Of a stretch of 64,000 bases of DNA, positions 19,777 to 60,589 are shown piece by piece. Source of the DNA: Colletotrichum lupini. Its lineage: Eukaryota > Ascomycota > Sordariomycetes > Glomerellales > Glomerellaceae. Every line of letters starts with the position of its first letter. Position 1 is the stretch's first letter. The translations under genes and the position numbers were made by a program. The notes under the pieces were generated by a model. The model saw nothing but the letters and a program-made list of their open reading frames with translations. It was not told the DNA's origin and did no database searches. Location: positions 2,666,001 through 2,730,000 of the forward strand of contig NC_064675.1 in the NCBI RefSeq assembly GCF_023278565.1, written 5' to 3'.

Positions 19777-21039
19777 ATGTCGAGCGTCGAGAGCGAGCGC
19801 TCAGTACCTGCGCCGGATAAGCCTGTCGAGGAACAACGGCCCTTATGGAAGGACGACGATGTTCCAGCAGAAGATAGCGATGCTTTCAAGAGCCGTATTC
19901 ATCGTGAGTTACTTTGCTATTAAACTTACAGGGTTAGCCGACTCACGCCAATTAGGCTACTTCGGAGAGCATGGTGCGAAAGATGAGACGTTCTAACTTA
20001 AAGATGATTAAATTAGCAATTGGTCCGACCCGCCGAACCCTAAGTGCTACGCTTCTTTTGGGGATGACGGAGTAATAGCTACCGTTAATGCCTACGGCGA
20101 CTTGATGCAATTTAGTAGCTTTTTGGGGGTTGGTCAATCCGGTGTATTTTCTGCCGACTATGGCGATACAGACGAGCTATTCTATGTTCTAAGTAGAGCT
20201 GAGTAACTGCTCGAAATGTAGCGAGATTAAGTGCGCGAGTGCGTTGGCTACGGCCTGCGATTTCTTAGTATAAATCCGCGGCGATGCCGCAATCTAGGTT
20301 ACGTCTATGATAGATGGCCTCGGTATGAGATGGAAGACGATAAACTTAAACTTACTTTGTAGTGGATGGTCTACGAGAGAACGGTTTTGTAGCAATGCCT
20401 TATTATAAACGATAGGGCGGACGATGTGGAAGTCCCTTTTCGATTTGCTAAAGCTATGCAGATCCGAGACTTGGATTATCTTAAGTGGCCCAATTTAGAA
20501 AAGCAGCCTGGCCAATTTCAAATCCAAGCCCCAAATGGCTACGGGTGGGTTTTTGTTTAGCATTTGTAGTATGAAGGAGCGGACGAAGAAAAGGAGAACG
20601 GAGCAGTATTATCGCCTGCTATTTAAATCGAGATAGTAACCGAAGATCCAAAGGAAATGCCGAAATAGGCGAAGCTCCCATCGCCTGAGCTATTGGATGC
20701 TATTGTAGTTGTGGTGTCTGTCTTTGTGGATGGTAAAGCTGTTTATTGGGATCCTAGGGATAGTACGGTTCCCGACCTTTGGAAAAGATATTTGGGGAGT
20801 AAAGCTACATTTGAGGTTGTCACCGCTTATAAAATGGTATATTTGACTAAGTTTAATGCTGCATGGGATGAGTTCCTCGTACTAGCCGTCTAAGTAGACG
20901 TTGGTAAGTATCTGAAGTTAGTTAAATTTACGGCGTTCCGTATCTTAGAATATATTAAGCCTGCCGAAGGTAAGGAAAAAGAGAAATCCGAGAAAACTAG
21001 AAATCGATGGGTACAATCTGTTCTATTAACTAAAGATAT
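19777..21039 (+). pseudogene. CorA-like gene, fragment 1 (codons 1 to about 404)
   Basis: Starts with ATG in CAAACATGT context and reads MSSVESERSVPAPDKPVEEQ. Exon 1 ends at 19903 and exon 2 resumes at 19956 with RYFGEHGAKDETF. About 12 in-frame stops follow, for example CAA-to-TAA after DETF. It ends at the GATAT target site of Copia A2 (21035-21039). The single open piece 20693-20893 is a part of this frame, not an independent gene. Confidence 0.82.
19904..19955 (+). other. Intron 1 of the CorA-like gene
   Basis: GTGAGT donor, GACTCAC branch-like site and AATTAG acceptor give 52 nt and a clean RIH-RYFGEHG join. An inner CTTACAG acceptor at 19931 is also in frame but would leave a 28-nt intron, which is too short. 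Confidence 0.7.
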
Positions 21040-21244
21040 TATTAGTATCCCTATTATAGGGTAGTTAGTTCGAACCGTAGTTAACGAAGAGATTAATTAA
21101 ACTATATAAATATTTACGTAGTAAGTATAAAAAAGAGGTTCTAACCGTAGGTTAGGCTAGCTATAATAATTATAAATAAGGCCCCTAATTAGCCTTTATA
21201 TAGTTAGTTATATACCGCGGTTAAATTAGATTTTTAATTTAATA
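21040..21244 (-). repeat. Left LTR of Copia A2 (3' LTR)
   Basis: 205 bp, from TATTAGTATCC to TTTAATTTAATA. It is strongly RIP-converted compared with the solo LTR at 43356. Confidence 0.92.
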
Positions 21245-24200
21245 CCAACTTTTTTTTTTTATTAATTTAATTACTATAGTTAGAAGTATAATTCGACCTC
21301 GGGCCCGTTTATTAAGTCGTCTTTTTTTCCCCCTTTTCTCTACTCTTTTTATATAACTTATCTTTTTATTTATATAATAACTTTTTTATTATTTATAAAT
21401 TACTCTAATCCTTTATTTAGTATTACTTTTATAAAAGCGTTTATAAAGTTATTTTTATTATTAATCTAACGGATCTTAAGTATTTTGCGCCTTTTATACG
21501 ATTACTTAAGGGCTATAATATTAATTATAAGCTTCTTTTCTTTTATTATTCTTAATTTAACGAGGTATTTATATAGTAAGTAGGAATTAGTATAAATAAC
21601 CGTTAAAATAAGTAAAAAGCTAATTTAATTAATAATTTTTTTTAGCGTTATTAAAATTATATAAGAGAGGTTAATGCCGTTAATTATACTATATACTTCT
21701 AATATTAGTATACTTTTCGTTACCCGCTTATTTTTAGTTAATAAATAGTAGATTATATTACTATATATAATAAATTCGCTCTTACTTATACTCTTATTAA
21801 TTAAGATAATAATATACCCTAATTACGAAGTAAGGTCGTTATTATTCGTAAATAACTTATTAATAAAGACGTAGAGCTTATTAGTTATAAGGTTAATTAG
21901 GTAATAGATAAGACCTTAATCGAGATTCGTTTATTATTACTTAAGCTACTTATTAAGTACTTTAACGTTTTATTTAATTAAATTTATAGCCTATACTACT
22001 CTAATATAATTAAAAATTACTTTAAGCTAATAAATACTTATAATATATACCCCTCGCACGAGCTTAGCTTTATATTACTTTTTAATATTAATTACGTTCG
22101 GATTAATAAGGTTAATCTTTTTACTCTATTCCTTTTATTAAAAAATAACGGTTTTTTATTATTATAAAAATCCTATTATTAAATACTAGGGGGGTATTTA
22201 TTATAAGGACCTCTTTTAGCTTTATTATAAAGCCCGCTTTTTAAAGCTCTTTATCCTCCTTTTTTATAAAATTAATATTAAATAGGCTTAATATATCGTC
22301 GGTTTATATTCTAACGATTTTAAATTAGTTACCTTCGTACTCTATAATTAATAAGTACGGGTTATATATAGAGGTAATTATTAATAGTTAATTAATATAA
22401 AAATCGTAATAAGTAGCTTACTAATAAGTACCCGATTTTATAAGCTTATATAGTAGCTTAAGTACTTTAATAATCGTGCTTTCTAAGTACTTATTAGCTA
22501 TTTTTTTTAATAAATAGGCTAGGATTTTCTTTATAAGCCCTGTGGCTAATTAAGTATAGGCCTAGGTAATATTACGGCTCTAAATTTTATATCCCCTTTT
22601 TTATAATAATACTATTAATATTATTATTAATCGTTAGCTATAGCGCTATATAATAAGCGATTATATAAGTAGCGTTACCTTTTTAACGTTACCGTACCCC
22701 TAAATTACGTATTTAAACTTTTTATACGGCTAGGGTGTTTTTTTTTTTAATTTTATAAACTATTTATAATTTAAATATATAGAGGTTTATATGTTTTTTT
22801 AAGTTATATAGAATAAATTAATAGACCCCTCGATTATAAAGAGTATTTATTTCGATAAAATTTAATCTTTTATATAGCTTTTTAGTAGTTATAATTATAC
22901 TTTCCTTGCGTAGTTTAACCGCTAGCTCAAAATCGGCTTTCTCTTTTACTATATAAAAAGTATTAATTACCTTATTATTAATAATAAATTATTATATTAG
23001 GGCTTACTATCGTAGTCTTTTGCGACGTCTCGCTAGTAATATTAATACCCTTTTAATAATTTCCTTTTCCTCGTTATTTATTAGTATTACTACGACGATT
23101 TTATTAAAAATAATTTCTTATACTTCTACTGTAAGTTATATAGTTTCCCCTAGCTCTTCTTTTTTTTATAAGTTAGAAATTACTTTATTAGGATTTATAT
23201 AATACGGTCTAACTACCGTAATTAATACTTTAAGTAGCTAGTTACGATCTTTCGTAATTATATAAGAGCGCTCGTTAATAAGAATTAACTTATATAACCT
23301 AGCTTATTATTAAGTCATTTCGTACTATACTTATATATCCGAATTTAGTAATATATTTAAATTACCCCCTATATTAGGCCTATTGCGCATAGTAATTACC
23401 TTATTAACTTATTTTTTTATACTTACCTCGCGTAATACTTATATTACTTTTTTAATTATTTAAGCTCGTTAGCTTATACCTAGCGATAGTAGTAAAGTTA
23501 AGGTCGTTTTTAAATATACTTTAAATATTAATAATATTAATATAAGTCCGTTAGGCCCTATAGTATTATTATAGTATTTAAGTACTATTTAGAAGTATTT
23601 GTCGTTAGTAAAATCCGGATTTTCTTTTTTAATAATTCTAAACGCCCTTTTTAATTATTAGTATACCCTTTTTACTTTTTTAATACTATAGTGCGCTTTA
23701 ATAAGTACGATTTTTAGTTATATACCGTAGGCCGTTATATTATCCCTAAATTTTACTAACTTAAAGCTAGTATTAGCGTCGGTTTTAATATTATTTAGCG
23801 GTCCTTAGTATATATCAATTTAGCTTTTTCGTAGGGTTATTTATATTATTTTTATTTATAAATCCTAGAGGAATTACCCTACTTAAAAAGATATAGCTAC
23901 GTTAATTATATATAGTACTAGCCGACTATTTAAATAAAAAATATCGATAACGATTTTTTAATTAAAATTAAGCTTATTACGTAATTTAAACTTAAATCTG
24001 CGTAGGCTCTGTATATTTATTTAGTATTAGTAATATACTTTCGTTAACTATTCTAACACCCTTATTTCGATATTATTATTACTTAATTATTTTAAAAAGT
24101 TATATAGCCTCGTAACCGACGGGTGCCCGAATCTCTAATATAGTTTTCTAAGCTTACTTTCCGTTAAGTAATTAATCGACTTTGTATTATTAATAAGCTT

Positions 24201-27200
24201 TATAAACGTATACCCCTATCGTTATTTAACTATTTCGAAGTACTTATTATTAAAGATTTTATTCCTCGTATTATTAAATATAATACTTAGTTAATCTATA
24301 TTTTTTAAATATAGGAGAAATAAAGTATTAATGGGTAAAATATAAAAAGTTATTATTCCGAAGTACGTCTTTATTTTTACTATACCTAGGGCGACGATTT
24401 CTTTACTTAGGCCGAAACTAATTTTTATAATACCCGCCGTTAACGTATTAAGTATTATTAATACGATCTTTTATAGTACTTAGAATTGCCCTTTTCTTTT
24501 AGTTAACTATTACGATACCTTAGTATCTAGGATAATTTTATAGAAATTATCTAGGCCGTACCTTTTGCTTATATAGAATATTTATATAAACTTAGTATTT
24601 AAAAGATCTAAGTAATATAAAAAGGACCCCTCTAGCTACTCTTAGATTTATTTAGTATTATATTCTTTTTTTTTAAATCTTAGAAAAAATAGCGTTTTCT
24701 CTTTAATTATTAAGAGAATAGGCTTTGGCCTTATTAAATTTACCCTTTTAACCGCCTCTATATCCGTTATTTAAGGGACCTTCCCTTATTATTTATAAAT
24801 AAAAACCTACTTATTAAGAGCTTTTATTACCCTTTATTTATTTAGTTTTATATATCCTCCGGAGGCTAACGGGGCGAAAAAAGAGTAGTTAATATTATCG
24901 ATTTTATTATAATCTAATTTATTAGTATAGGGGGTAAGATCTTCCTTATTTTCTAAATCTTTTATAAGGGGTATATATTTTAAGCTATTATTTTAGCTAC
25001 TATTACTAACTTCCGTACCCCTGGATTTATTTTTATATATAACGAGGAATTAGTTAAATTAACGAGGGCTGGTTTTGCTATTTATTACCCTTAACTTTTT
25101 ATACTATTTATACGATTTAATACGCTCTTTTTTAGAGTAGTTACTTAATTAATATCTATCCTTTTTATAAATATAGTATTACCTCTTTTATTACCCTACC
25201 CGTAAGTTAAATTTTTATTTATTTAATAAATCTAAGCCTCCTTATTAATAATTACTATATTTAGCCTCTTTTCCTTTCTTATTATACGTTCGATCGACTT
25301 AATATTATTAATAAGGGCCGTTGTATACTTAGAAATAGGTTTAATACAGTATTTGTATTTTAATATTAAAACTAGATCTTAGTTTTAAATAAAGCGTCTC
25401 GTATTCTTTGGGTACTTAATATAGGGTTATTTTTATTTTTAATATACGCTAAATTATAATATAAAAATATCCGACTTTTTACTTATTTATCCCCTTATTT
25501 AGCTAGGTTTTTATTAGCTTATTAATTCGATTAATAAGCTTTTTAAGGATCTCTATTCGTAATTTACTTTCTATTATCTTAGTTATAAATATAAAAAAAA
25601 TCGTTCGTAGTTTAAATAGAAGCTTTAGGTTTTTATTATAAGTTTTGAAGCGGCTTCGGATTGCGTTAATTATACTAAAAAAGTCGTTTTAATTAAGATT
25701 ACGTACCGCTTCGTAATAATAATTAGAGGCTTTATTTCTAAATATAATATTAATTACTAAATAGTACTAGTATTCCCTAATTCCGACTTTTTTATAATAA
25801 TTATAAAATATTATTAGGGTTTTTTATAAGACCTTATACTTCCTCTTAAAGTATAATTTCTTTTTTAAAAAGATCTTTTTAAAGTTTATAAATTACTTCG
25901 TATTTACTATTAGATTTTTAATATTTATATACGATCCTTGCGTCGCTACGTATTATTAATAACTTCGGGTCGTTTACCTCTTTTTTTATTAACTAATTAA
26001 TACCGAATTTCGTATTAATAATAATAACGAGTTATAGATTAAAATAAGTAGAATTATTAGTTATTATACTTCTAATATTATATTTTGCCCCGGTATATCC
26101 TTTTATAATAATAGATTTCTATTAGTAATTATAAAGAGGAAATTTAGGTCGTTTACCCTTTTTCTAAATTTATTAAAGCGATTATACGCTTTATTAACTT
26201 ATACTTAGTTTTATAATACGAATTCCTCTTTTATAATTATTATTATTAATATTTCGTATAGCTCTTACGATTATAATTACGCTAATAATACCCCTTGTTT
26301 ATAAAGGAATTTATTAACTATTTTTATAATTCTTAAGCTTGCGCTCGCGAACTATTTATTTAGTTAGTAGCTAAGGTCGTTTATAATCTTATAAAATAGG
26401 GGTTACCCCTATAGCCCCTTTTTTTTATAAACCTTAATTAAATAAATTAATACCGTATTAATTTACTTACCGTTAAGCTAATTTACGATTTTATATATTT
26501 ATATCCCTTAATAATCCGGGTTAATATTTATTTATTTATAAGGGATTAGAATTCTATTTAGGATTAGGTTTCGTCCTTTTTTTTTTTTTTAACTTACTAA
26601 GGGTTATGCTCTAGTTTATACTCGTATTAGTAATTATTAGCGTATTTAATTTTAATAGGGATATATTTAATCTGCGCACTAGTTATAATAAATTCGTACT
26701 TTTATTACCTAACGAATTTATCGGGGTTTAAGAGATTCCCACTTCTTTTTACTATTTTATTACTACTCTCGTTTTTATTATTTTTAACGATTACTATTAC
26801 TTTTTTAAATCGCTAGCTATTATACTTACTAAGATCCTCTTTTCTATTTAGTATAAAAGAGTAGGTTTTAGTAGTTCCTTTTTATAATAGTAGTAATAAA
26901 CGTTTATATTATTATAAAAAAATATAGTAATTAGTCTTAGGATCTTTATTAATTACTAATTTCCGCTATTCTATGTATTTCTAGTTTCCTAAGCCTCGTA
27001 CTCTTTATAATCTCTAAATAACTTCTTTTTTTAACTTATTTTTTTTAAAATAGTATTTAATAAGAATAGTTAAAAATAAATATTAAGTAGCTCGTAAAGG
27101 AGCTATATAAGTTATTAAAAACTATATAGGCCGTTAAGTATAATTAACGAAGTTAAGCCCTTTTTTTTATAAAATCGTAGATTTTAAAAACTTATTAAAA

Positions 27201-27461
27201 ATACTTATTTATTATTTATACGTAGTGGGGTTAAATATTTTAAAAATCTTATTTTTTATAGCCTCTTAGTACCCTATTTTATATTTTTTAAGTAGTCTTT
27301 TTTATAGCTTAATTATAATTAGGTAATTATTACTTATTAATAATCCTTTTTATTATTTAGTTAATTCTTTAAAATTAGTAATTTTATACTAAGAGCTAAT
27401 ATAAAAAAAAGCCTTTTAGCGGCTTTTTAAAGGATTTTTTTCTTTTTTTTTTAGATCCTCG

Positions 27462-27684
27462 TGTTACGGCAGTGGGCATTAGGGCCCCTGTGGGCCCCGT
27501 GGCTTAGCCTTAGGCTGCGAGGCTAAGCTCTTAGTAGTTACGTAACGAGCTAGACCGCTAGGCCCAAAGGGCTAGCTCGCTAGCTTCTACTTACTATTCT
27601 ATTTTTTCCTTCTTACGTTAAGTCTTTAGTTAATTAGGTTAATATAGTAGCGTTCCGACCTACCTTAAGTTCCCTTTTATAATA
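27462..27684 (+). repeat. 5' LTR of Gypsy C
   Basis: 223 bp, from TGTTACGGCAGTGGGC to TTTTATAATA. It has a stem-loop with arms GCTTAGCC (27502-27509) and GGCTAAGC (27521-27528), the palindrome GTTACGTAAC and an AGCTAG-rich inverted repeat. Little RIP is seen in its first 30 bases. Confidence 0.92.
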
Positions 27685-28099
27685 CTACTTAACGTTACTT
27701 AATTAACTATTCTTTAAAAACAGAACGATAATATCTTAATTAATTAACTATTTACTATACTAACTAGCTACTTTTACTAAGAAAGCTTATAAGAGAGCCG
27801 AGCAATAGCTAACTAAATTAATCGTATATAAGTAGTATAATTAATACCCCTTAAATATATACCCCTTTTACTAGACGTAATAGTTAGAGGATATAGCTAA
27901 GGAGGCTAGGTCTCTTTTTATACTAATAGCTTTTAATAAAGTCGTTATTTTTATAAGTTTTAATAGAGCGTCGTAGGCCCTAACGAAGGCGCTAAGCTCT
28001 TAGTTATTAACCCTAAGGTCGCGCTATTCGACTAGTTAGTAAAGCGCTTCTTACCCTTTATTACTTAGGCCGATTACTTAGCGTACTTTAATAACGTAG

Positions 28100-31000
28100 C
28101 TAACTAGCTTACCTCGCCTATTTATATCCGCAACGATATCCTTTTTAAAAAGAATACTAAGTAGTATATCGACCTCGACCTTATCTAAGAACTATACTTT
28201 AAAAACGATAAAAAGACCCTACTTAAGTAGATCGAATAGTAGCTAAAGATGCGCATTACTTAGTATTAATTAGAGTAGGTCCTAGCTTTTATTATTAGCT
28301 AGCTAAGTAATAATACGGAGCGCTTATACGTAATAACCTATAAGAACCTCGACCTTATATATATTACTATTATAAAGCTCTATATTACGAAAGAAGCCCT
28401 TACCTAAGCCCATGTTAATAATGCGGCTATAGTTAAAAAACTAGAGTAATTAGAGAACGGCTCCTAAGCTAGCTCTATTTAGGACATTACTACCCTTAGC
28501 GTACTAAAATAATAGCTAGTACGCTTAGAAACGTAGGGTAGCTACGAGACTACTCTAGCCTCGTCCTATCCCATTACCTACGGCTCTTAAAAAATACCTA
28601 ACGTGCCTATTTTTATAAGCGATAATACTAGCTTTAAGTTTAATTACTAGCTCTAACGTATTATAAAGCGCTTAGAAAATACTAACTATAGTATAAATAG
28701 GTATCGCTTAGAGTATATTATTAATAAGATTAGAGGTAGTGCTACGGAGTTTATATACCTAATACTAACTTTTAACGAGATTACTACGGCCGAGTAGCTA
28801 CTTTACGAGCTTAAGTCGGCTTATACTAGCCCGATTATTATAGACAACGCTAGTCGTAAGCTAGACGTACTCGTAATTATACTTAAAAACGTTTACTAAA
28901 AGCGCTCTATATTTACTAAGCTCGCGCGTATTAATAAGCTTCTAAAGTCTTAGTAAAAGCGCCGTTTTTATAATAAGCTACTTATATATTTTTATAACTA
29001 AGCTATATTAAAGTACTTAAATAACACGGCTACTTTCTAAAAGTATATTAAGTACGTTACCTAGTTAGCTAACGCGATATAGCCCCCTTTTATAGAGGAC
29101 CGCCCGGTTAAGGCTTCTAACTAAACCCGCTAAACCTTAGGTAGAAATAATAGAAGTAGCGGAAATAATAGAGGTACTAAAGGTATTAAATAGGACTAAG
29201 GTCGTACCTCTACTCGCGAGATAATCCCTAAAGCCCTATATTAAAAGCTTAAGGATAGTAGCGCTTATTTCGTTTATAATAATACTAAATATATTTCTAA
29301 AGACTATTTTAAAAAGCTAAAGATTACTATAGCCGCTATTAACGCTACCGAGGGCCTTATTAAGATAGAGTCGGGTTTAAAAAACTAGAACCCCTAGTAG
29401 AAGTAAACTCCTAGCTAGGGGATACGTATAAAAAGGACGGAAGATTAGTAATTAATTTAGCGAGCTTATAAGATCTCGTAAGGGGCTAGCCCTTTAAAAT
29501 AGAGCTTATACTAGTATTTAATAAATATAGAATTTACTTAAGAGCCTTACTTAATACGAGAGCTAATAAGTACGGATTTATAAATAACTACGTAACCCCT
29601 TTATTATAACGGTTCTGCGCAGCCCTATCTTATAAATTATAACGCCTAATCCCTACTACTAGATTTAATAAAGAGCGATTAGATAATACTAGCGTAGTAT
29701 AGACCGCTAACTTATATATTAATTAATAAGTCTTTTTAAAAGTACCCCTCTTTTAGTTTAATACGGGTCGCTACGACTTAATCCTAGGGTAGAAGTAGTT
29801 CGAATACTACGGGGTAAACCCTAATGTTCGCTACCGATATTTAATATAGCTAGAGGACCTATTATTATAAGAGACGCCCTTTACTATTATTAGGGATATC
29901 GAGGACCTATATACCCCGGAAGTTATTAACGTATAATACTAAATCGACGCTAACTATTAATAGGACTTATTTAAAATAAATATAACCCGCTATAACTAAA
30001 AGCTTTAGTAATAGCGGGTAAAGGGCACACTAATTAAGATATTACTACGCTTACTAAAGACGATAGCCCGTTAAATATAGCGGTTAAATAAGGCTAAGAA
30101 TACAAAGAAAATAGAACGCGCCCTTAACGGTATTAATATTACCCCCATAGAGAGGGCTAGGTAGTAAAAACTATACTTAGTAATAGTATAAATAGATATT
30201 ATTTTTATTAGCGCTCCCGCTTTTAAAAAAAACCTAAGGTAGAACGATATCGAAATAGGCTTTATATTATTTTATAAGCTTAATTATATTATAGAGGATA
30301 AGAAGGAGGAGGTAGACCCTTTATATAACGACGACTAAGTTACTTACGACCTTATAGCGACGAACTTACTAAAGTATTTACGGCCCTAGACTAACGTTTT
30401 TAGTAAGGCTACTAGCGATATACTAGCGCTTTATAAACTATATAACTATAAGATCGAGCTCCTAAATAGTAGTAGGGAGAAGCTAACTTATTACCCTTTA
30501 TATAAGTAGTTAGTGCCTAAGCTAGAGGCTATAAGGGCCTATTTACTAAAGTACTTATAAAAGGGATTTATCGAGCTAAGTAATACTCCTTTCGTATTAC
30601 TAACGCTATTTATAAAAAAGTACGATAATAGCTTGCGCTTTTACGTTAACTTCTATAAGCTTAATAAGGTTATAAAAAAAGACTACTACCTATTACTACT
30701 TATTAATAAGACCCTCGCGCGGCTAGGTAAAATAAAGGTGTTTATTAAGCTAGATATTAAGTAGGCCTTCTACCGTATCCGACTCGACCTAGCCTTTAAG
30801 GACTTAACGACGTTTAGAACCCGCTACGGGGTATATAAGTATAAGGTAGTACTCTTTAGGCTCTATAACGGGCTTATTACGTATTAGTAATATATAAACG
30901 AGATACTAATAGAGTACTTAGACGACTTTTATACGGTATATATAAATAATATCCTAATCTTCTCCAACGACCCCCTTTAGTACTAAGAGTACGTTATTAA

Positions 31001-33520
31001 AGTACTAGACCGCTTGCGGAAGGTAGGCTTATAAGCGGATATTAAGAAGTGCGAATTTAGTATTATTTTTATAAAGTACCTAAGCTTTATAGTTTTAATA
31101 AAAGGTATATAGCTAAACGAGGAGAAAGTCTCTATAGTTAGAGACTAGAAACTACCTATATTACTTAAAAGTATCTAGTCTTTCCTCGGGTTTTATAACT
31201 TTTATAAGAGGTTTATAAAGAATTACGGCTACCTAGCTAGGCCCTTTACGAAGTTAATAAGTAAAGGAGTTCCCTTTAACTTTAGTGCCGGCTACGAGAC
31301 GGCCTTTAAGGCTATAAAACTAGCGCTAACGTCGGTACCTATCCTTTATTACTTTAAATAAGAGCTATTAACGCGGCTAAAAATAGACGCTTTTAACTTA
31401 GTATACGCCGGGGCGCTATTATAATAATAAAAGGATAACGGGTTATAGTACTTAGTAGCCTTTTATTTAAAAATAATAAGCGGCACAGAGCTTAACTACG
31501 CTATTTATAATAAAAAAATATTAATAATAGTGCTATATTTAGAGAAATAGCGCGCAGAGCTCGTAAGCTATAAATATAAGTTCGATATTATTATAGACTA
31601 TTAGCTACTACTATTCTTTATAACTAAGCGCCTACTTAACTTATAATAAGCCCGCTAGGCTAGCACGCTAATAAACTTTAATTTTTAAATTTACTATTAC
31701 CCGGGGAAGGAGAACGTGCTAGCTAACGCCCTCTTATAAAAGATAGAAGATATCCGTACTTAGTAAGTACTAAAAGAGGCTAATAGGATATAAGTCCTTA
31801 TACTACTAGGACTACTATTTTTTAATATTATAGCGGAGCTACGGGCGCTACTAAGCGCCGCCGTTAGCTAACTATAGCTTATAGTTAGCTTACTTTTATT
31901 AGAAAACGAGCTATAGGGGTACTTATTAATAAAAAAGATTTTAAAGCTTAATAGGGACCTTATTATAATATCTCTCGTATTAATACGAGCGCTAGCGGCT
32001 AAAGGACGCGAGCGCTAGTCTATTTAAAATAACGGATTATTAATAATAAATAAGAAACTCGTAGTACCCGAGGAGGAGAACCTCCGTACTATAGTTATTC
32101 GTAAGGTTTACGAATAGAAACTCCTTACTTACCTAGGGCGTAATAAGGTCATAAAAATAATTAAATAGCGGTACTACTAGCCGGGCCTAATAATAAATAC
32201 TTATTAATACGTTCGGAACTATTATACTTACTATTAGTTATAGAAGCCGCGCAATAAACCCCCGGAGGAGCTAAGACCGCTATTAGTACCTAACTACTTA
32301 TAATAATATATCTTTACTAACTTTATAACTATCCTTACTAATTAAAAAGGATTTAATAATATATAAATAGTAGTAAACTGCTTAGGTAAAAGGGCGATAT
32401 TTATTCCTTATTATAAGACTATTATAATAAAAGATATAAGCTAGATATTCTATAAGCGGGTACTACCTATCTTCGGCCTATTAAAAACTATTACGTCGGA
32501 CCGAGGCCCCTAATTTATCTCCGACTTCTAAGGGGAGCTTTATAAGATTTACGGGGTTAAGTTATAGCTATTAATAGCGGATTACTTATAGATAGACGGC
32601 TAGATAGAGGTACTAAACTAGTATATCCTATAATAGTTAAGACTACTAGTTAACTAATATTAAGATAACTAGAGCGATATACTACCCGCAGTCGACTTTA
32701 CTTATACTACCTAGCTTAGTAAGACTACGGGGCTATTACTATACAAAATAGAATTCGGTCGCTAGTTACGGCTTTTTTTTAACTAGTCTAAGCGAACTTA
32801 TTAATTCGGCTCTATAAAAGAGAAGCTAAACCGTACTAACGCGTAGCGTATAGCTTAGGGAATATACGAGGCCTAGGAAATCGCTAGGGGTAATATAAAA
32901 GTTACTTAGGTACGATATAAAAGGTATACTAACCGCTACCGGCGCCCGGACGACTTAAAAATAAGAGACCGGGTCTTTATTAATACCTCGTATTAGAAGT
33001 TTACCGATGTAAATAAACTATAATAGCTATAGGCCGGCCTATAGCCTATCGTTAGTACTAAATAAGGGGTTATATAGGTCGTAGAATTATTAATAAGTAG
33101 CTAGGTATACCCGGTTTTTTACTTAAATAAGCTAAGGAAGGCTACTAACGACTTACTACCCGGGTAGAACTAAGAGCCGCTATTATTAATTACTAATAAT
33201 AACGGCGAGCCGGAGTACGAGGTCTTTAAAGTAGTTAAGTTATATTTATATAAGGAAAAGCTATAGTACTAAGTAGATTAGAAGGAATATAATACGGATC
33301 TAACGTAGTACGACATAAAGAGCTTTAAATATACGCCGGCGGCGCTATAAGCGTTTTATTATTAGTACTTAATTACTAAGGGTCCGCTATAGAACTTAGA
33401 TATATAAATAGAAGCTACCGTAGCTAGCGATTTGCTACTACTAAGGGACGATAATAATATAATAGTAGTAATTATAGCTACGGATTCGCTAAAATAAAGA
33501 GTAATTAAGAGGTTTATTTT
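28100..33520 (+). pseudogene. RIP-inactivated gag-pol of Gypsy C, with chromodomain
   Basis: A gag zinc knuckle lies near 29250-29320, where CX2CX4HX4C now reads AYFVYNNTKYISKDYFKK. RT has KLDIK at 30746-30760, then TTFRTRYGVYKYKVV, and the active site reads YINN at 30939-30950 followed by ILIFSND (YIDD before RIP). The integrase HHCC region is about 32095-32230, the catalytic Asp segment TSDRGP is near 32490, and a GPY/F-type region follows. A chromodomain lies at about 33205-33350 (EPEYEVFKVVK, then KEYNTDLT*YD). Stops at former Trp and Gln codons are frequent throughout, so no function remains. Confidence 0.88.
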
Positions 33521-33563
33521 TCGGCGCTACGGATAGCGCCCTCTAGTATAGAGGGGGGGGTAA

Positions 33564-33787
33564 TATTACGGTAGTAAGTATTAGGGCCCTTGTAAGCCCC
33601 GTGGCTTAGCCTTAGGCTACGAGGCTAAGCTCTTAGTAGTTACGTAACGAGCTAGACTGCTAGGCCTAAAGGGCTAGCTCGCTAGCTTTTACTTACTATT
33701 CTATTTTTTCCCTTTTTACGTTAAGTCTTTAGTTAATTAGGTTAATATAGCAGCGTTCCGACCTACCTTAAGTTCCCTTTCGTAATA
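33564..33787 (+). repeat. 3' LTR of Gypsy C
   Basis: 224 bp, from TATTACGGTAGTAAG to CCCTTTCGTAATA. It differs from the 5' LTR by one small indel (a C/T run near 33709) and several C-to-T or G-to-A changes. Confidence 0.92.
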
Positions 33788-34785: not shown

Positions 34786-34790
34786 GATAT

Positions 34791-42570: not shown

Positions 42571-42709
42571 TTATTATATAAATAAAGGGATAGGTTATAT
42601 AAAAAAAGTAGAGAAAAGGGGGAAAAGGAGACGACTTAGTAAACGGGCCCGAGGTCGAATTATACCTCTAACTATAGCGGTTAAATTGATAAAAGAAAGA
42701 GAAAGTTAG

Positions 42710-49200: not shown

Positions 49201-51241
49201 TTATATAATCTTATTAATCGCTCTATAATTAACGTAAAGTCGTAGCTCTCCTTTTTTCTTAAATATAAAAAGGATAGGTACTCTTACTGGGCTTATAGAG
49301 GGGCATATCTAGCCCCTAGCCTCTATTTTTATTAAATAGTTACGTAAGATCTCGAGCTTATAGTTCGATAGCGGGTAGATAGGTCCCTAGGGAATAGGCG
49401 CCGCGTTATTTAGCTCGATATAGTAGTCGTACGGTGCTCTATTTAGTAGCGAGATAGCCTTCTTTTTTAAAAATAAGTCGTTAAAGTCCTAGTAACGTAG
49501 CTTCTAGTCCTTAGCTACGCTTATTAGTATTACGTCGCTATTTATAGCTAGGTTAATTACGATATATATAAGTATTACCGAAACTAAGTCGTTTAGTAGC
49601 CCCTTTTTTAGGGCGTTTAAGTAAATATATCGTTCGTAAATTAGATATTACTACTTCTTTTACTTCTAACTAATTAGTAAGTCGATATTCTCTAGCTAGG
49701 GGAAACTAAGGATAAGCGTAAGTACCGTAATATTAACTATTACGAAGCGATATAGCTATGTTTTTATTACGTAGTTATTATTAGTAATTTAAAGCTATAG
49801 GTAGTAGTTTCCTAGCGTCTCTATCTATTTACCCTCGACGTTTATTAGCTACGGCGATAGGTAAATTCGTAGATTAGCGTTAAAGCTATTAAGTAGCCCG
49901 ATACTAACTACGTTCCCTTCTACTCCTAAATCGATAAGGGCGCTTAGCTTCTTTTATACGTAGTTTAAGTATATATAGGTCGGGACGTTTAAGCGCTACC
50001 CTTATTAATTACTAGTTACTTTTCTTATTAAGATAGTATTCGAGCTTATTATTAGTCCGCGCTACTTAGCTAGGGCGAGGTTTAATTAATAGCTAGCGGC
50101 CTTATACCCTTTCTAATTATATTTATAATATATAACGCTCGAGTAGCTATTAGCGAGGTGCCCGGTTTTATTATAATTATAGTATTATTAATACTACTCC
50201 CGCGGTTGTGGGTAATCTTTTACGATATAACTAGTCTTTTTATAATTATAATACGTAGTATCTTTACTAGGCGAGTTACGGCGTATTCTTTACGTATTCG
50301 ATTTATTAGCGCCTTAGTATCTTCCCGCTAGCTCGTTTAAGTTTAAGTTAGAATATTACCTAGGGGACGTTCGTAAGCTCTTTATTAATAGCGAGGATTA
50401 TTCGATACGTCTTATTAATAATACTAGTTATAGGTAAGTCTACGGAAGTTCTATTTATAATACTATTACGAGGCATAGTTCGGGCCATAGCTTACTTATT
50501 AGCGTAGAGATCCTCTATTTCTCTATTAGGACATATTCTAATTCTATCTCGAGCTTATTAATGCGGCTAACGAACTTATTAACTTTCTTTTTTTAGCCTT
50601 GCGAGGTACTATTTAGTTATATACTCGCTACTATTCCTTAGCTAGCGGGATTAAATAAGTTATCTTATAAAAAGGTCTTTAGTTCTTTTTATATAACTTA
50701 GTTTATTATAAAACCGGGGGTCCTTTAGTAGTCGAAAATATAGTATATTTAGGAGGTTTTTATACCGCTACTTAAGTAGCTAACCGTATACGCTACTTTA
50801 TTACGGTCTATTCTTATTTATTAAGCCTATAGGTTAAAGCGATAGTAATAGTTAAAAAAAAAGCTTTATAAATCCCGTACCGATTTACTAATATATAATA
50901 AGTTAGGGAGGGATAGTAATCTAAATATAGACGTTCCGCTTATAGCGCTTATTTAAATTAAGAGGGAGCTAATAAATAGGGGCTTAGGTAGTACGAACTT
51001 ATTATTTTATCGTCGCTCGAGCGGCGCTTTAAGTACGGCTTTGCTTATTAAACTATCCTTAGTCTAGGGGTTTACGTTTCTATTTATATTAAAGCTAACG
51101 TCCGAAGTTATTATAATTAAAACTATAGCCCTTAGCGCGGGGGCCGGGCTATTTAAGGAGCTTTATAAGCGTTTTAAATTTACTCGTCTTTTATATAAGC
51201 GCTCTTCGTACGTTACGATAAAGATTTCTTTTTCTAATTAT
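46261..51241 (-). pseudogene. RIP-inactivated gag-pol of Gypsy B2, with chromodomain
   Basis: Same order as B1: gag with two zinc knuckles at about 50101-50231, RT active site YLDN at 48928-48939, integrase with GPY/F segment at about 46470-46650, chromodomain at about 46303-46364 (YLI, then KGYSSDE). B2 keeps a few residues that B1 has lost and vice versa, so the pair could give a consensus of the family. Stops occur throughout. Confidence 0.86.
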
Positions 51242-51567
51242 CGTTTTTATTTTTATAGTTCTACTAGCCTATTACTTATCGTTCGGTTTAAGTATTAATA
51301 AGTAAGGGTAAGAGGTTTACTATTTTATTTAAAATTCGTTAATACTCTTAGTAATGCGGTCCTTTTACGTTACCGCTACGTTAATAGTTCTACCGCGCTT
51401 CGTTCTTATATTATTTACTAAGGAAGAGGCGACTCTAGGGGGTCCGATAGAAAAGAGTCGTTTTTTTTTTATTATTATAGTACTAACTACGCTCTCTCGC
51501 TATGTCTCGTTCTTATTAGTATTTTAAGCTTCCGGCCTAGTCCCCTTTATAAATAAAGATTTTAGAC

Positions 51568-51777
51568 TATTAATAAGTATACGATATAGGGAAGAAGCTT
51601 ATAGAGGCTAATTACTATTAGGGTCTAAAAGAGGAATTACTAAAATTTGCCCTTCCTTCGAGGTATATTACTAGCGCTCTATATATACCTAAGCTACTCT
51701 TTTATTACTTAGTCCCCCTCTTTATGCCCCCCTAAACTATCCCTTAACTAACGAGGCCTAACCGGTAAGGCCTAATA
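51568..51777 (-). repeat. Right LTR of Gypsy B2 (5' LTR)
   Basis: 210 bp, TATTAATAAG to GGCCTAATA, followed by TSD GGTTT. Confidence 0.93.
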
Positions 51778-51782
51778 GGTTT

Positions 51783-52481
51783 CGCTTTTTAAGAGACTTT
51801 TTTAACCGATACTAGACTTATTATATAATTAAACACGTCTTGCCTTAGTAGCAGAGGCCTGAGCCGTGGGACGAAAAAGGTTAGTAATAAAGGAAAGTGC
51901 TAAAGTTATAGCTTTTTAATAGAATCCTAAAAGAGATTGTCTAGAGTACTAAAGATATCTTCGATATAGTCGTATACGAGCTAGGAGAAAACCGGGGAAC
52001 AATCTTATTCTCGACTCTGAGTAGCGTTAAGTACTTTTTATCTAGCGCCTAGTAGTAGAACTATTAGTAAATACTCTAGGTCGTAGAGGAAGAGCTCGTA
52101 GACGTGCTATCGACCGTCCTTAAATAGGAGGCGCGTGAGAAAGATAGGGGCTAGGAGCGGCCGCGATAGATACGTAACGACGAGCGTAAATACCGCGGCC
52201 TCATTAGGAAGATATAAGGTTCGATAGGTCGCTATACGCGAGATTTACATAACTACCGTAATAGCATTCGGTTACTAAAGGAGTAGCTAATCAGTAATTA
52301 GCAACAGAGCCGTAATAACCTCTCGCTAATCGACGTAGAGAACGTCCGGCTCTTTACGTACGTAACTGTTATATTCCTACCGCTTAGCTTCGCGGCTAGC
52401 ATCTTTAGCATGAGCGAAACACTACTAGGCGATGTCCTTAAGCCCATAATTATTTGCTCCGTTATTACGCTCTTCCTCACC
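51783..52481 (+). pseudogene. CorA-like gene, fragment 5 (codons 1176-1408), with TM1
   Basis: In frame from fragment 4 (IGF to RFLRDFFNRY). It has the highest density of stops, about 20, nearly all where Trp or Gln would fit. Next come a basic stretch around 52180-52310 and SNLSLIDVENVRLF-like sequence leading into TM1 (about 52340-52410, ending FAASIFSM). TM2 begins (VLKPIIICSVITLFLT) and is cut at TCACC (52477-52481) by Copia A4. Confidence 0.83.
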
Positions 52482-52686
52482 TGTTAGTATCCCTATTACA
52501 GGGTAGTTAGTTCGAACCGTAGTTAACGAAGAGATTAATTAAACTATATAAATATCTGCGTAATAGGTATAAAAAAGAGGTTTTAACTATAGGTTAAGCT
52601 AGCTATAATAATCGTAAATAAGGCCCCTAATTAGCCCCTACGTAGTTAGCTATATATTACGGTCGAATTAGATTTCTAATTTAATA
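52482..52686 (-). repeat. Left LTR of Copia A4 (3' LTR)
   Basis: 205 bp, TGTTAGTATCC to TCTAATTTAATA. The outer 60 bases are well preserved and the inner end is RIP-converted. Confidence 0.93.
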
Positions 52687-55600
52687 TTAACTTTCTCTTT
52701 TTTTTATCGATTTAACTACTACGGTTAGAGGTATAATTCGACCTCAGGCCCGTTTACTAAGTCGTCTCCTTTTCCCCTTTTTTTTTACTTTTTTTATATA
52801 ACCTATCCCTCTATTTATATAATAACTTTTTCGCTACTTATAAATTACTCTAATCCCTTATTTAGTACTACTTTTATAAAAGCGTTTGCGAGGTTATTTT
52901 TATTATTAATTTTACAGATTTTAAGTATCTTGCGCTTTTTATATAATTACCTAAGGGCTATAATATTAATTATAAGCCTCTTTTCTTTTATTATTCCTAA
53001 TTTAACGAGGTATTTATATAGTAAGTAAGAATTAGTATAAATAACCGTTAGAATAAGTAAAAGGCTAATTTAATTAGTAATCTTCTTTAGCGTTATTAAA
53101 ATTACGTAGGAGAGGTTAATACTATTAACTATACCATAGACTTCTAATATTAATATACTTCTCGTTACCCGCTTATTTTTAGTTAACGAGTAATAGATTA
53201 TATTACTATATATAGTAAATTCGCTCTTACTTATACTCTCGTTAGCTAGGATAATAATATACCCTAATTATAAAGTAAGGTCGTTATTATTTATAAATAA
53301 CTTATTAATAAAGACGTAGAGCTTACTAATTATAAGGTCGATTAGGTAATAAACGAGACCTCGATCGAGATTTATTTATTACTACTTAAGCTGCTTATTA
53401 AGTACCTTAACGTTTTATTTAGTTAGATCTATAGCTTACGCTACCCTACCGTAATTAAAAATTACTTCGGGTTAATAAATATTTATAATATATACCCCTC
53501 GCACGAGCTTAGCTTTATATTATTTTTTAATATCGGTTATATTTAAATCAACGAGGTTAATTTTCTTACCCTACCCCTTTTATTAAAAAACGACGGTTTC
53601 CTTTTTAATTATAAAAATCCCGCTATTAAATACTAAGGGGGTATTTATTATAAGGACCTCTTTTAGCTTCGTTACGGAGCCCGCTTTTTAGAGCTCCTTA
53701 TCCTCCTTTTTTATAAAGTTAATATTAAATAGGCCTAATATATTATTAATTTATATTCTAACGATTTTAAATTAGTTACCTTTATACTCCGTAACTAGTA
53801 AGTACGGGTCGTACGTAAAAGTGATTATTAATAGTTAATTAATATAAAAATCGTAGTAAGTAGCTTATTAATAAGTGCCCGATTCTACGAGCCTATATAG
53901 TAGCTTAAGTACTTTAATAATCGTGCTTTTTAGGTACTTATTAGCTATTTCTTTTAGTAAATAGGCTAGGATTTTTTTTATAAGTCCTGTGGCTGATTGG
54001 GTATAAGCCTAGGTAATATTACGGCTCTAAATTTCGTATCCCTTTTTTTATAGTAATACTATTAGTGCTATTATTAATTATTAGTTATAGCGTTATATAG
54101 TAAGTAATTATATAAGTAGCGTCGCTTTTTTAATATCGCCGTACCCTTGAATTACGTATTTAGATTTCTCATATAGCTAGGGTGTTCCTTTCTTTTTAAT
54201 TTTACGAATTATTCGTAATTTAAATATGCGGAGGTTGATATATTTTTTTAGGTTATATAGGATAAATTAATAGACCCCTCGATTGCGAAGAGTATTTATT
54301 TTAATAAGATCTAATCCCTTATATAGTTTTTTAGTAGTTATAATTATGCTTTCCTTGCGTAGTTTAACTACTAGTTCGAAATCGGCTTTTTTCATTATTA
54401 TATAAAAGGTATTAATTACCTCGTTATTAGTAATAAATTACTGCGTTAGGGCTTACTATTATAGTTTTTTATAACGTCTCGCTAGTAGTATTAGTACCCT
54501 TTTAATAATTTCTTTTTCTTTATTATTTATTAGTACTACTATAACGATTTTATTAAGGATAATTTTTTATACTTTTACCGCGGGTTATATAGTTTTCCTT
54601 AGCTCTTTTTTTTTTTTATAGGTTAGAAATTACTTCGTTGGGATTTATATAGTACGGTTTAATTACTATAATTAATATTTTAAGTAGCTAGTTACGATCT
54701 CTTATAATTATATAAGAGCGCTCGTTAATAAAAATTAACTTATATAGCCTAGCCTATTATTAAGTAATTTCGCGCTATACTCGTATATCTAAATTTAGTA
54801 ATATATTTAGATTATTCCCTATATTAGGCCTATTGCGCGTAGTAATTACTTTATTAACTTACTTTCTAATACTTACCTCGCGCAGTGCCCATATTACTTT
54901 TTTAACTACTTAGGCTCGTTAGCTTATATTTAGTAATAGTAATAAGGCTAAGGTCGTTCTTAGATATACTCTAAATATTAATAGCGTTAGTATAAGTCCG
55001 TTAGGCCCTATAGTATTATTATAATATTTAAGTACTATTTAGAGGTATTCGTTATTAGTGGAATCCGGATTTTTTTTTTAATAATTCTGAACGCCTTTTT
55101 TAATTATTAGTGTGCCCTCTTTACTTTTTTAATACTATAATACGCTTTAATAAGTACGACTTTTAACTATATACTATAGGCCGTTATATTATTCCTGAAT
55201 TTTACTAATTTAAAGCTAGTATTAATGTCGGTTTTAATACTATTTAGTAGTCCTTAGTATGTATCGATCTAGCTTTTTTATAGGGCTATTTATATTATTT
55301 TTATTTATAAATCCTAGAGGAATTGCCCTATTTAAAAAGATATAGCTATATCGATTATATATAGTACTAGCCGACTATTTAAATAAAAGATATTAATAAC
55401 GATTTTTTAGTTAAAGTTAAGCTTATTACGTAATTTAAACTTAAATTTACGTAGGCTCTGTATATTTATTTAGTATTAGTAATATACTTTCGTTAACTAT
55501 TCTAACACCCTTATTTCGATATTATTATTACTTAATTATTTTAAAAAGTTATATAGCCTCGTAACCGACGGGTGCCCGAATCTCTAATATAGTTTTCTAA

Positions 55601-58600
55601 GCTCACTTTCCGTTAAGTAATTAATCGACTTTATATTATTAATAAGCTTTATAAACGTATACCCTTATTATCGTTTAACTATTTCGAAGTACTTATTATT
55701 AAAGATTCTATTTTTCGTATTATTAAATATAATGCCTAGTCGATCTATATTTTTTAAATATAAGAGAAATGGGGTATTAATAAGTAAAATATAGAAAGTT
55801 ATTGTTCCGAAGTGCGTCTCTATTTTTACTATACCTAGGGCGACGATTTCCTTACTTAGGCTAAAACTAATCTTTATAATACTTACTATTAACGTATTAA
55901 GCGTTACTAATACGATTTTTTATAGTACTTATAGAATTACCCTTTTTTTTTAGTTAACTATTATAATACCTTAGTATTTAGGATAATCTTATAGAAATTA
56001 CTTAGGCCGTACTTTTTACTCGCGTAAAATACTTATATAAGCTTAGTATTTAAGAGATTTAGGTAGTATAAAAAGGACCCCTTTAGCTACCCTTAGATTT
56101 ACTTAGTACTATATTCCTTTTTTTTAAATATTAAAAAAAATAGCGTCTTCTTTTTAATCGTTAAGAGAATAGGCTTTAGCCCTATTAGATTTACCTTTTT
56201 AGTTACCTCTATATCCGTTATTTAAGGGACCTTCCCTTATTATTTATAAATAAAAGCTTATTTATTAAGAGCTTTTATTACCCTCTATTCGTTTAGCCTC
56301 GTATATCCTCTAGAGGCTAACGGGGCGAAAAAAGAGTAATTAATATTATTAATTTTATTATAATCTAATTCGTTAGTATAGGGGGTAAGATCTTCTTTAT
56401 TTTCCGAATCTTTTATAGGGGGTATATACTTTAGGCTATTATTTTAGCTACTATTATTAGGTTCCGTACCCCTAGATCTGCCTTTATATATAATAAAAAA
56501 TTAGTTAAATTAACGAGGGCTGGTTTTGCTATTTATTACCCTCGACTTTTTATATTATTTATACGATTTAATACGCTCTTTTTTAGAGTAGTTACTTAAC
56601 TAATATTTATCTTTTTTATAAATATAGTATTACTTTTTTTATTACCCTACCCGTAAGTTAAATCTTTACTTATTTAACGAATCTAGGCCTCTTTATTAGT
56701 AATTACTATATTTAGCCTTTTTTCTTTTTTTATTATACGTTCGATCGACTTAATATTATTAATAAGGGCCGTTATATACCTAGAGGTAGGTTTAGCGCAG
56801 TATTCTTATTTTAATATTAAAACTAGATTTTAGCCTCGAGTAGAGCGCCTCGTAGTTTTTAAGTACTTAGTATAGGGTTATTTTTATTTTTAATATACGC
56901 TAGATTATAATATAAAAATATCTGACTTTTTACTTATTTATTTTCTTATTTAGCTAGGTTTTTATTAGCTTATTGATTCGATCGATAAGCTTTTTAAGGA
57001 TCTCTATTTATGATTTACCCTTTATTATCTTAGTTATAAATATAAAAGAAATCGCTCGTAGCTTAGATAGGAGCTCTAGGTTCTTATTATAGGTCTCGAA
57101 GCGGCTTTAAATTACGTTAATTATATTAAAAAAGTCGTTTTAATTAAAATTACGTACTACTTTATAATAATAATCCGAGGCTTTACTTATAAGTATAATA
57201 TTAATTACCGAATAATACTAGTATTCCCTAATTTTAACTTTTTTATAATAATCGTAAAATATTATTAGGGTTTTTTATAAGACGTTATACTTCCCCTTAG
57301 AGTATAATTTCTTTTTTGGGAAGATCTTTTTGAGGTTTATAAATTACTTCGTATTTACTACTAGATTTCTGGTATTTATATACGATCCCTACGTTACTAC
57401 GTATTATTAGTAACTTTGGATCGTTTACTTCTTTTTTTATTAGCTAATTAGCGCTGAATTTTGCGTTAGTAATAGTAATGAGTTATAAATTAAAATAAGC
57501 AGAATTATTAATTATCGTATTTTTAGTACTATATTTTGCCCTAGTATATCCTTTTATAATAATAGATTTTTATTAGTAATTATAGGGAGGAAATTTGGGT
57601 TATTTACTTTTTTTTTAAATTCGTTAAAGCGATTATACGCTCTATTAACTTATACTTAGTTCTATAGTACGAATTCCTTTTTTATAATTATTATTATTAG
57701 TATTTTATATAGCTCTTGCGATTATAATTGCGTTAGTAATACCCCTTACTTATAGAGGAATTTATTAACTACTTTTATAATTCTTAGGCTTGCGCTCGCG
57801 AACTATTTATCTAGTTAGGAACTAAGGTCGTTTATAATTTCGTAAAATAGGGGTTACCCCTATAGCCCCTTTTTCTTATAGACCTTAGTTAAATAGATTA
57901 ATACCGCGTTAATTTACTTATTATTAAGCTAATCCGCGATTTTATATATCTACGTCCCTTAATAATCCGGGTTAATATTTATTTACTTATAAGGGATTAG
58001 GATTTTATTTAGGATCGGGTTTCGTCCTTTTTTTTTTTACCCTAACTTACTAAGGGTCGTATTTTAGTTTATGCCCGTATTAGTAGTCGTTAGCGTATTT
58101 AATTTTAATAAGGATATATTTAATTCGCGTATTAGTTATAATAAATCCGTATTTTTATTACTTAACGAATTTGTTAGGGTTTAGGAGATTCCCGCTTCTT
58201 TTTACTATCTCGCTACTATTCTCGTTTTTATTATTTTTAGTAATTATTATTACTTTTTTAAATTGCTAGCTATTATACTTATTAAAATCCTCCTTTTTAT
58301 TTAGTATAAAAGGGTAGGTTTTAGTAGTTCTTTTTTATAATAATAGTAGTAAACGTTTATATTACTATAAGAAGATTTAGTAATTAGTCTTAGGATTTTT
58401 ATTAGTTACTAATTTTCGCTATTCTATATACTTCTAGCCTCCTAAGCCTCGTGCTCTTTATAATTTTTAAATAATTTCTTTTTTTAACTTACTTTTTTTA
58501 AGGTAGTATTCTATAAGAATAGTTAAAAGTAAATACCGGGCGGCTCGTAAAGGAGCTATATAGGCTATTAAGAACTATATAGGCTATTAAGTATAGTTAA

Positions 58601-59701
58601 CGAAGTTAAGCCCTCTTTTTTATAAAATCGTATATTTTAAAAACTTACTAAAAATGCTTATTTATTACTCGTATATAGTAGGGTTAAATACTTTAAAGAT
58701 TTTATTTTTTACGGCCTCTTAATACCCTATTTTATATTTTTTAAATAATCTTTTTCATAGCTTAATTACGGTTAAGTAATTATTACTTATTAGCGATCCT
58801 TTTTATTACTTAGTTAATTTCTTAAAATTAATAATCTCGCGCTAGGAGTTAATATAAAAAAAAGCCCTTTAGCGGCCCTTTAGAAAATTCTTTTTTTTTC
58901 CCTTTAAATCCTCGTCCTTTTAGCTTTTTCTTAAGTTAATAATAACTCTAGCGGGAGGTTATAAAACTATTTTAAAATAGCTACCTTTTTTTTAAGTTAA
59001 TTTCTAAGATTTATAATACTCTTAACTTAATATTATTAAGACCTCTAAATCCCCTCCTCCTTTATTAAACCGTCCCTTATATTATATTCTTAAGTAATAC
59101 CCGGGGGGTAGTTAAGAGAGCTATAAAGAGGTTATTTAGATTATAAGCTTAAGGTCGTATTTATAAAATCCTCGTAGTAATAGACTTTTTTATATACTAT
59201 AGATCTCTTAGCTTAATAACTCTTATAAAGTTACCTTTATTACTAAGTAAGAATATTTACGTTTAGAGATCCTTTTTTTTAATTACGCAGTACTTTTTTA
59301 TATTATATTATTAAGCTCGTTCGTTACGCTAACTAATTAGGTAAGTAGTTATTATATAAATATTTCTTTTTACTAATTTAACTAGTTAATTTTTAATTAC
59401 GGGCCGGCTATAGAAAAGTTGTTTAATAAAAAAGCTACTCGGAGTAATAATAAAAGGCTAGTTACTTAAGTAGTTTTATTAATTAACGTAGTTTAACGTA
59501 GTAAACGTCGACCTCTCGTGGGTAGTAAAGGGCTATAATTACTTAATTTTATATAATATTTAAGAATTACCTCTTTTTTTATTTATTTTTATAAGGTTAA
59601 TTAATATAAATTTCTTATCCCGTATAGTATTAAAAGGTCGTCTCTTTTACGTAGCGAGATATTTTATTAATTTACGATAATAGAATTTAATTACTAATTA
59701 G

Positions 59702-59906
59702 TATTAGTATCCTTATTATAAGGTAATTAGTTCGAACCGTAGTTAATAAAAAGATTAATTAAACTATATAAATATTTACGTAGTAGGTATAAAAAGGAGG
59801 TTCTAACCGTAGGTTAGGCTAGCTATAATAATTATAAATAGGGCCCCTAATTAGCCCCTGCGCAGTCGGCTGTATGCCGCGGTCGAATTAGACTTTTAAT
59901 CCGACA
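59702..59906 (-). repeat. Right LTR of Copia A4 (5' LTR)
   Basis: 205 bp, TATTAGTATCC to TTAATCCGACA, the only family A LTR here that keeps its terminal CA. Confidence 0.93.
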
Positions 59907-59911
59907 TCACC

Positions 59912-60589
59912 ATTATGGCGCTGGCGAATGCGAAGAAAGTGTCAATGGCGATTAATAACTACTCGCAGGCGAAGATCAACAGCAGTCTGTTTAACTTGAG
60001 ACACGAGGCGCAGGCGTCACCCACACGACATTAACATGAGGAGGCCAAGGCTGGCGGGGTATCTGAAAAGGACAAAAAGCCTGGCGGTCCTACTTCAACC
60101 CAACCAATCATCAACAAGGCAAGCTTTTCGGGGCACGTTCGGTTCTGGATAGTATATCTATTCATTGACCTGCCCTCTGAGAAGGTCTCTACGACATGTG
60201 GGATCTTGGGAGACAAAGAGCCTAGCTACTGGACCACCTACATTCATGTCATTGTAGGATTCATGGTTTCACCTGTCCTTCTCGTTGCTCGCCTCATCCA
60301 GATTTTTCTTTACAACACAATCGATTTGGGGCGACTGGCCTGGGGTAAGTGTGATGCCCCACCTGACCGTTCTCACTACTGACTCACTCAAGGCCAATAC
60401 AAGCTTTTTGTTACATCAGCAAAGCCGAAGAAGCAACAGTTGAAGCGGAATTGGCTGACAGACACCACGAGTATACATCGGTCGCTCAAGGAAAAGGTTG
60501 CAGAAGTGAAAGAACGCTTATCAGACCAGCAGATAAGTAAGAACGAACCGAGCAGGTATGGAGATACCGGTATGAAAGAGTCAAGATGA
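59912..60589 (+). pseudogene. CorA-like gene, fragment 6 (codons 1409-1617 and stop)
   Basis: In frame from TM2 in fragment 5 (LFLT to IMALANAKKVSMAINNYSQ). One in-frame TAA follows PTRH at about 60030. Later come FSGHVRFWIVYLFIDLPSEK and the hydrophobic VIVGFMVSPVLLVARL. Intron 60345-60392 joins LAWG to QYKLFVTSAKPKK. A basic, charged tail ends GMKESR and TGA (60587-60589). Composition is almost normal, which shows RIP fading to the right. Confidence 0.82.
60345..60392 (+). other. Intron 3 of the CorA-like gene
   Basis: GTAAGT donor, two possible CTGAC/CTCAC branch sites and AAG acceptor, 48 nt. Removing it is needed to keep the last 66 codons in frame up to TGA at 60587-60589. Confidence 0.8.

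What the first reader, a model, noticed from the sequence alone, without database searches (positions are those of the whole stretch)
19777..60589. One 1617-residue host CorA-like gene exploded over 41 kb by five LTR insertions and still readable in frame
Six islands between elements read as a single gene. With A2, A3, the solo LTR, B2 and A4 each disregarded together with one TSD copy, and three canonical introns removed, the total is 4854 nt, exactly 1618 codons with a terminal TGA. Each junction keeps the frame: residues 403-404, 744-745, 890/891, 1175/1176 and 1408/1409. This is hard to obtain by chance, and it shows that the islands are exons rather than old spacers. The CorA-like tail (FLPLSFAASIFSM) identifies the family.
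Basis: partly seen in the sequence, partly recalled or inferred. Interest (0 to 1): 0.9.

Follow-up and report, generated by a model that had tools for sequence, protein, structure and literature searches.

The report
Dead fungal gene split by retrotransposons
A single large fungal gene has been split over 41 kb by five retrotransposon insertions and also peppered with mutations of the kind made by the fungal defence against repeated DNA, so it is a dead gene whose reading frame can still be traced, not a working one.

Summary
The anatomy is real. Five LTR insertions (A2, A3, a solo LTR, B2, A4), each with a 5-bp target-site duplication, cut one gene into six islands. Less three short introns they total 4854 nt, 1618 codons ending in TGA. 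A distant paralog about 1.75 Mb away on the same contig aligns to islands 2, 3, 4 and 5 in order.

"Still readable in frame" is only half right. There is no frameshift, but the frame holds 52 premature stops, 51 of them TAA/TAG, with the CpA loss of repeat-induced point mutation, RIP. Removing an insert with one duplication copy always restores phase, and RIP makes only transitions, so a kept frame is what a young RIP-killed pseudogene should show.

The unexpected part: no second copy was found, and most of 38 flanks of the same LTR family elsewhere are hardly touched. Yet islands 1-2 lost CpA on the coding strand, and island 3, later island 4 and island 5 on both strands; loss stops within about 4 nt of A4. 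Best reading: RIP spread between clustered copies. Orthologs could not be searched.

The parts
4181..18962 (+). Element A1 with a nested B-type element, ending 814 nt upstream of the start codon; duplication TACGC/TGCGC read by eye
18963..19776 (+). Sequence between A1 and the start codon, without RIP signature
   Evidence: fCA 0.63, fTG 0.63
19777..21039 (+). Island 1: ATG, exon 1 (19777-19903), predicted intron 19904-19955, exon 2; 12 premature stops; CpA lost on the coding strand
21040..34785 (+). Element A2 with a nested third element (its repeats at 27464-27686 and 33566-33789); duplication GATAT
34791..35880 (+). Island 2, predicted intron 34980-35046; 7 premature stops; CpA lost on the coding strand
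35881..42914 (-). Element A3, inverted; duplication ACTAT
42920..43355 (+). Island 3; 5 premature stops; CpA and TpG both depleted
43356..43560 (+). Solo LTR of family A; duplication AGCAC/AGCAT
43566..44420 (+). Island 4; 7 premature stops, all after about 44000; first 330 nt less mutated than the rest
44421..51777 (+). Element B2; duplication GGTTT
51783..52481 (+). Island 5: CorA-like part; 20 premature stops; CpA and TpG both depleted
52482..59906 (+). Element A4; duplication TCACC
59912..60589 (+). Island 6: C-terminal end, predicted intron 60345-60392, terminal TGA 60587-60589; one premature stop; no RIP signature

Best explanation
One host gene of about 1618 codons with a CorA-like membrane tail was killed twice over. 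Four LTR elements and one solo LTR inserted into its exons, and RIP put 52 stop codons into its frame. Shown: one gene at least for islands 2-5, the insertions, the stops, the CpA-specific loss, no second copy found. Inferred: RIP reached this sequence because it lay between clustered copies of family A, so that the pieces between copies were treated like the repeats, while sequence outside the cluster (left of A1, right of A4) was left alone. Inferred: A4, and probably A3 and the solo LTR, were already in place, because the mutation pattern changes at or near them. Inferred: A2 and B2 may be later, because the pattern is alike on their two sides. Islands 1-2 would then have had about one round of RIP on one strand, and islands 3 to 5 more than one.
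For: Anatomy and stops. Paralog matches islands 2, 3, 4, 5 in order. CpA 25-27 per kb in islands 1-2 against 86 in island 6 and 73 in the right-hand gene, with TpG undiminished (67-70 against 60 and 62); islands 3 and 5 have 32 and 20 CpA, 14 and 17 TpG per kb. Trp codons kept in islands 1-2 (15 of 699) and nearly gone in islands 3, 4b, 5 (2 of 552), P = 0.006. No flank of 38 is as strand-skewed as islands 1 and 2 (0 of 38). Loss ends within about 4 nt of A4 at all three penalties tried. Outer flanks of the cluster are normal. In Neurospora 91.9% of RIP clusters are on one strand (PMC7296669, passages), and linkers in repeat-linker-repeat constructs mutate in a DIM-2-dependent way (PMC11969663, passages).
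Against: Other close spacers do not behave so as a rule: of 8 flanks with another element-like block within 1.8 kb, 4 look normal (L040, L043, L048, L049), 2 intermediate (L045, L051) and 2 depleted (L015, L032; whether these are single-copy was not tested). The sequence between A1 and exon 1 is normal though it too lies between copies, and the first 330 nt of island 4 are less hit though they adjoin the solo LTR. The match of change points to insertion sites depends on the penalty: 2 of 5 within 30 nt (P 0.03) or 3 of 5 within 100 nt (P 0.06) at the weakest, 1 or 2 of 5 (P 0.11-0.31) at the stronger ones. PMC12543289 reports k-mer enrichment in the repeats but not in the linker (passages).
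Confidence: 0.5

Rival explanations
1. The gene was itself duplicated once, both copies were hit by RIP, the other copy was lost, and the dead AT-richer gene then collected LTR insertions.
For: RIP targets duplicated DNA. Most flanks of family A are not mutated, so the elements alone do not usually bring RIP with them. The coding-strand pattern is alike on both sides of A2, as if islands 1 and 2 had been contiguous.
Against: No second copy was found with islands 1 and 5 as DNA or islands 1, 2 and 4 as protein, apart from the distant paralog, which has no strong RIP signature over its matched part. The loss ends almost exactly at A4. The solo LTR's two duplication copies differ by a C/T at a CpA, which suggests RIP after that insertion.
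Confidence: 0.33
2. Plain leakage of RIP out of each element into its neighbourhood.
For: Within about 110 nt of A2 and of A3's left end both strands are depleted in islands 1 and 2. Leakage into single-copy genes is published for Leptosphaeria maculans, with up to at least 930 bp quoted there for Neurospora (PMC2973834, passages).
Against: In 38 flanks from 36 of 39 fetched loci of the family, the pooled CpA share is 0.55 in the first 50 nt and 0.47 in the next 50, against 0.63 far away. Island 6 next to A4 is normal.
Confidence: 0.12
3. A working gene read through five giant introns, as 'still readable' might suggest.
For: No frameshift over 4854 nt.
Against: 52 premature stops, 20 of them in the CorA-bearing island.
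Confidence: 0.02

Closest known systems
RIP-mutated single-copy genes next to repeats, such as AvrLm6/LmCys1/LmTrans alleles in Leptosphaeria maculans (PMC2973834, passages seen)
   Same: A gene held to be single-copy, mutated C to T in CpA context beside RIP-hit repeats.
   Different: There a gradient falling with distance from one side; here insertions inside the exons, regimes that differ by island and strand, and a sharp stop at A4.
Repeat-linker-repeat RIP constructs of Neurospora (PMC11969663, passages and one section seen)
   Same: Unique DNA between close repeats can be mutated.
   Different: Natural cluster of RIP-hit elements, spacers from 0.4 kb; enzymes unknown; most other close spacers here are not depleted.
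CorA-like Mg2+ transporter family, PF01544
   Same: Island 5 matches profile positions 193-256 at 27.0 bits, the cut-off being 27.
   Different: Only the C-terminal part matches; islands 1-4 and 6 match no Pfam family except a sub-threshold Forkhead hit; the GMN motif (recalled) reads SMS in island 5 and in the paralog.

Membership tests
LTR retrotransposon insertions | 5-bp target-site duplication at each of the five insertions | tested here: met
   4 of 5 identical, the solo LTR with one C/T difference
LTR retrotransposon insertions | paired long terminal repeats (A2, A3, B2, A4) | tested here: met
   pairs of 197-208 aligned columns; with A1, 124 transitions and 1 transversion in 1002 columns, no gaps
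RIP-mutated pseudogene | CpA-specific C to T change | tested here: met
   CpA 20-35 per kb in islands 1-5 against 86 in island 6, CpG not depleted; 51 of 52 stops TAA/TAG
RIP-mutated pseudogene | target present in more than one copy | tested here: not met
   no second copy for islands 1 and 5 as DNA or 1, 2, 4 as protein save the distant paralog; islands 3 and 6 were not searched this way
RIP spread between repeats | unique DNA between copies mutated, outside spared | tested here: inconclusive
   true for much of islands 1-5 and the outer flanks; not for the stretch between A1 and exon 1, nor for 4 of 8 other close spacers
CorA (PF01544) | profile match over the curated cut-off | tested here: inconclusive
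   27.0 bits, 25.2 bits and below the cut-off in the six-frame search
CorA (PF01544) | GMN motif after the first membrane helix (recalled) | tested here: not met
   FSMS in island 5 and in the paralog
CorA (PF01544) | Mg2+ transport | not testable with these tools
   none

The most novel reading that the evidence does not exclude
The locus is a natural record of RIP acting on unique DNA only where it lies inside a dense cluster of repeat copies, one strand per round, with the element ends acting as borders of each round. Isolated copies of the same family leave their flanks alone, so clustering, not adjacency, would be what exposes host genes to RIP.
Probability: 0.35. Interest if true: 0.55.

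Novelty: new member of a known kind. Interest (0 to 1): 0.35.

Why it matters
RIP is usually described as a defence aimed at repeats, with host genes hit by chance leakage. Here a host gene cut into pieces carries different amounts and strands of RIP in different pieces, while most sampled flanks of the same element family are spared. If clustering is the cause, it would say when host genes become exposed, and the order of insertions and rounds could be read from one locus. As a gene, it is simply dead.

Tried and rejected
Full-length working gene: rejected because of 52 stops. Another genetic code: not pursued; other CorA matches in this genome lie in long frames without stops, and the stops here go with CpA loss. 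Homologs outside the genome: searches were not run by the tool (database switched off); one megablast of the right-hand gene against plasmids found nothing; the tail had no credible relative among solved structures (best E 0.22). The bacterial, viral and metagenome collections were not searched. Organism: not identified; paper searches for its genome size gave nothing. Support for island 6 from the paralog: none. Paper searches that returned nothing.

Full report
What was claimed. Six islands between five LTR insertions at 19777-60589 form one gene of 1617 residues that is still readable in frame.

Anatomy. The insertion edges and 5-bp duplications are as described. Four of the five duplications are identical; the solo LTR's differ by one C/T at a CpA. 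The islands sum to 5021 nt, the three predicted introns to 167 nt, leaving 4854 nt or 1618 codons with a terminal TGA. A2 also holds a nested third element. A1, with a nested B-type element, ends 814 nt upstream of the start codon. The LTR pairs of A1, A2, A3, B2 and A4 differ by 124 transitions and 1 transversion in 1002 columns, without gaps; 61 of the transitions lie in a CpA/TpG context as I scored it. That fits young insertions with differences made mainly by RIP.

Is it one gene? A locus about 1.75 Mb away on the same contig (L012) matches island 2 (residues 201-270, 39% identity), island 3 (1-94, 26%), island 4 (31-71, 39%; 134-270, 24%) and island 5 (78-122, 40%; 143-213, 41%) in that order on one strand. 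Those E-values are for a small set of fetched loci. Genome-wide, island 2 finds it at 1.0e-9 and the reverse search at 3.8e-9, but island 4 finds only itself, as does island 1. Islands 3, 5 and 6 were not searched genome-wide as protein queries. The paralog itself has TGA codons inside its matched frame, so it may be broken too or have introns there. Island 6 has no support from it. Islands 1 and 6 therefore rest on phase and on position.

Is it readable? No. The frame has 52 premature stops. Gln codons against TAA/TAG are 13 to 18 in islands 1-2, 9 to 32 in islands 3, 4b and 5, and 13 to 1 in exon 1, 4a and island 6. The absence of frameshifts is what RIP, which only makes transitions, and recent insertions would leave. 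Phase continuity over an insertion less one duplication copy is automatic.

How was it mutated? CpA is lost and CpG is not. Islands 1 and 2 have 25 and 27 CpA per kb but 67 and 70 TpG; island 6 has 86 and 60, the right-hand gene 73 and 62. So islands 1-2 were hit mainly on the coding strand, except within about 110 nt of A2 and of A3's left end, where both fall. Islands 3 and 5 have lost both, as has island 4 after about 43900; its first 330 nt are less hit, though at fCA 0.44 and fTG 0.41 still lower than 35 of 38 control flanks. Exon 1, the stretch before it and island 6 look normal. One-strand clusters are the usual product of one round in Neurospora: 91.9% of clusters (PMC7296669, passages).

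Control. They gave 38 usable flanks from 36 loci; L016, L031 and L046 gave none. Pooled CpA share is 0.55, 0.47, 0.56 and 0.61 at 0-50, 50-100, 100-200 and 200-400 nt, and 0.63 at 1600-2900 nt. Flanks as low as islands 1 and 2 on their lower strand number 2 of 38, as low as islands 3, 4b and 5 1 of 38; none of 38 is as skewed between strands as islands 1, 2 or 3. The two low flanks, L015 and L032, are short spacers before another element-like block.

Why here? The mutation pattern, segmented without regard to the insertions, changes within 4 nt of A4 at each of three penalties, 23 nt from the solo LTR at the weakest penalty only, and 86 nt from A3. Against random sites this is P 0.03 (2 of 5 within 30 nt) or 0.06 (3 of 5 within 100 nt) at the weakest penalty and 0.11-0.31 at the others. 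This favours, without proving, RIP after A4, and perhaps A3 and the solo LTR, were in place, and so spread between clustered copies. Against it stand normal spacers elsewhere (4 of 8 under 1.8 kb), the normal stretch between A1 and exon 1, and one report of no k-mer shift in a linker (PMC12543289, passages). A lost duplicate of the gene remains the main rival.

What it was. The tail matches PF01544 at the cut-off (27.0 bits; 25.2, below it). The recalled GMN motif reads SMS here and in the paralog, so the difference is not made by RIP, and magnesium transport should not be assumed. The rest of the protein matches no Pfam family above threshold.

Verdict.

Noticed in passing
window 27464-33789: A third element, with direct repeats of 151 and 85 nt spaced 6.1 kb, is nested in A2.
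   Followed up: partly
window 4181-18962: A1, with a nested B-type element, ends 814 nt upstream of the start codon, and the DNA between shows no RIP signature.
   Followed up: partly
L012:3541-6178 (own genome, contig 2): The only paralog found in the genome searches has in-frame TGA codons at 4426 and 4858 but no strong RIP signature there; it may be decaying in another way or have introns there.
   Followed up: partly
window 62597-63805: Right-hand neighbour is a deuterolysin-type metalloprotease (PF02102, 189 bits).
   Followed up: no
window 2267-3232: Left-hand open frame has a weak fungal transcription factor domain match (PF11951, 22.0 bits against a cut-off of 21).
   Followed up: no
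L015 left flank, L032 right flank: Two short spacers between element-like blocks (372 and 788 nt) are depleted of CpA and TpG; whether they are unique DNA was not tested.
   Followed up: no
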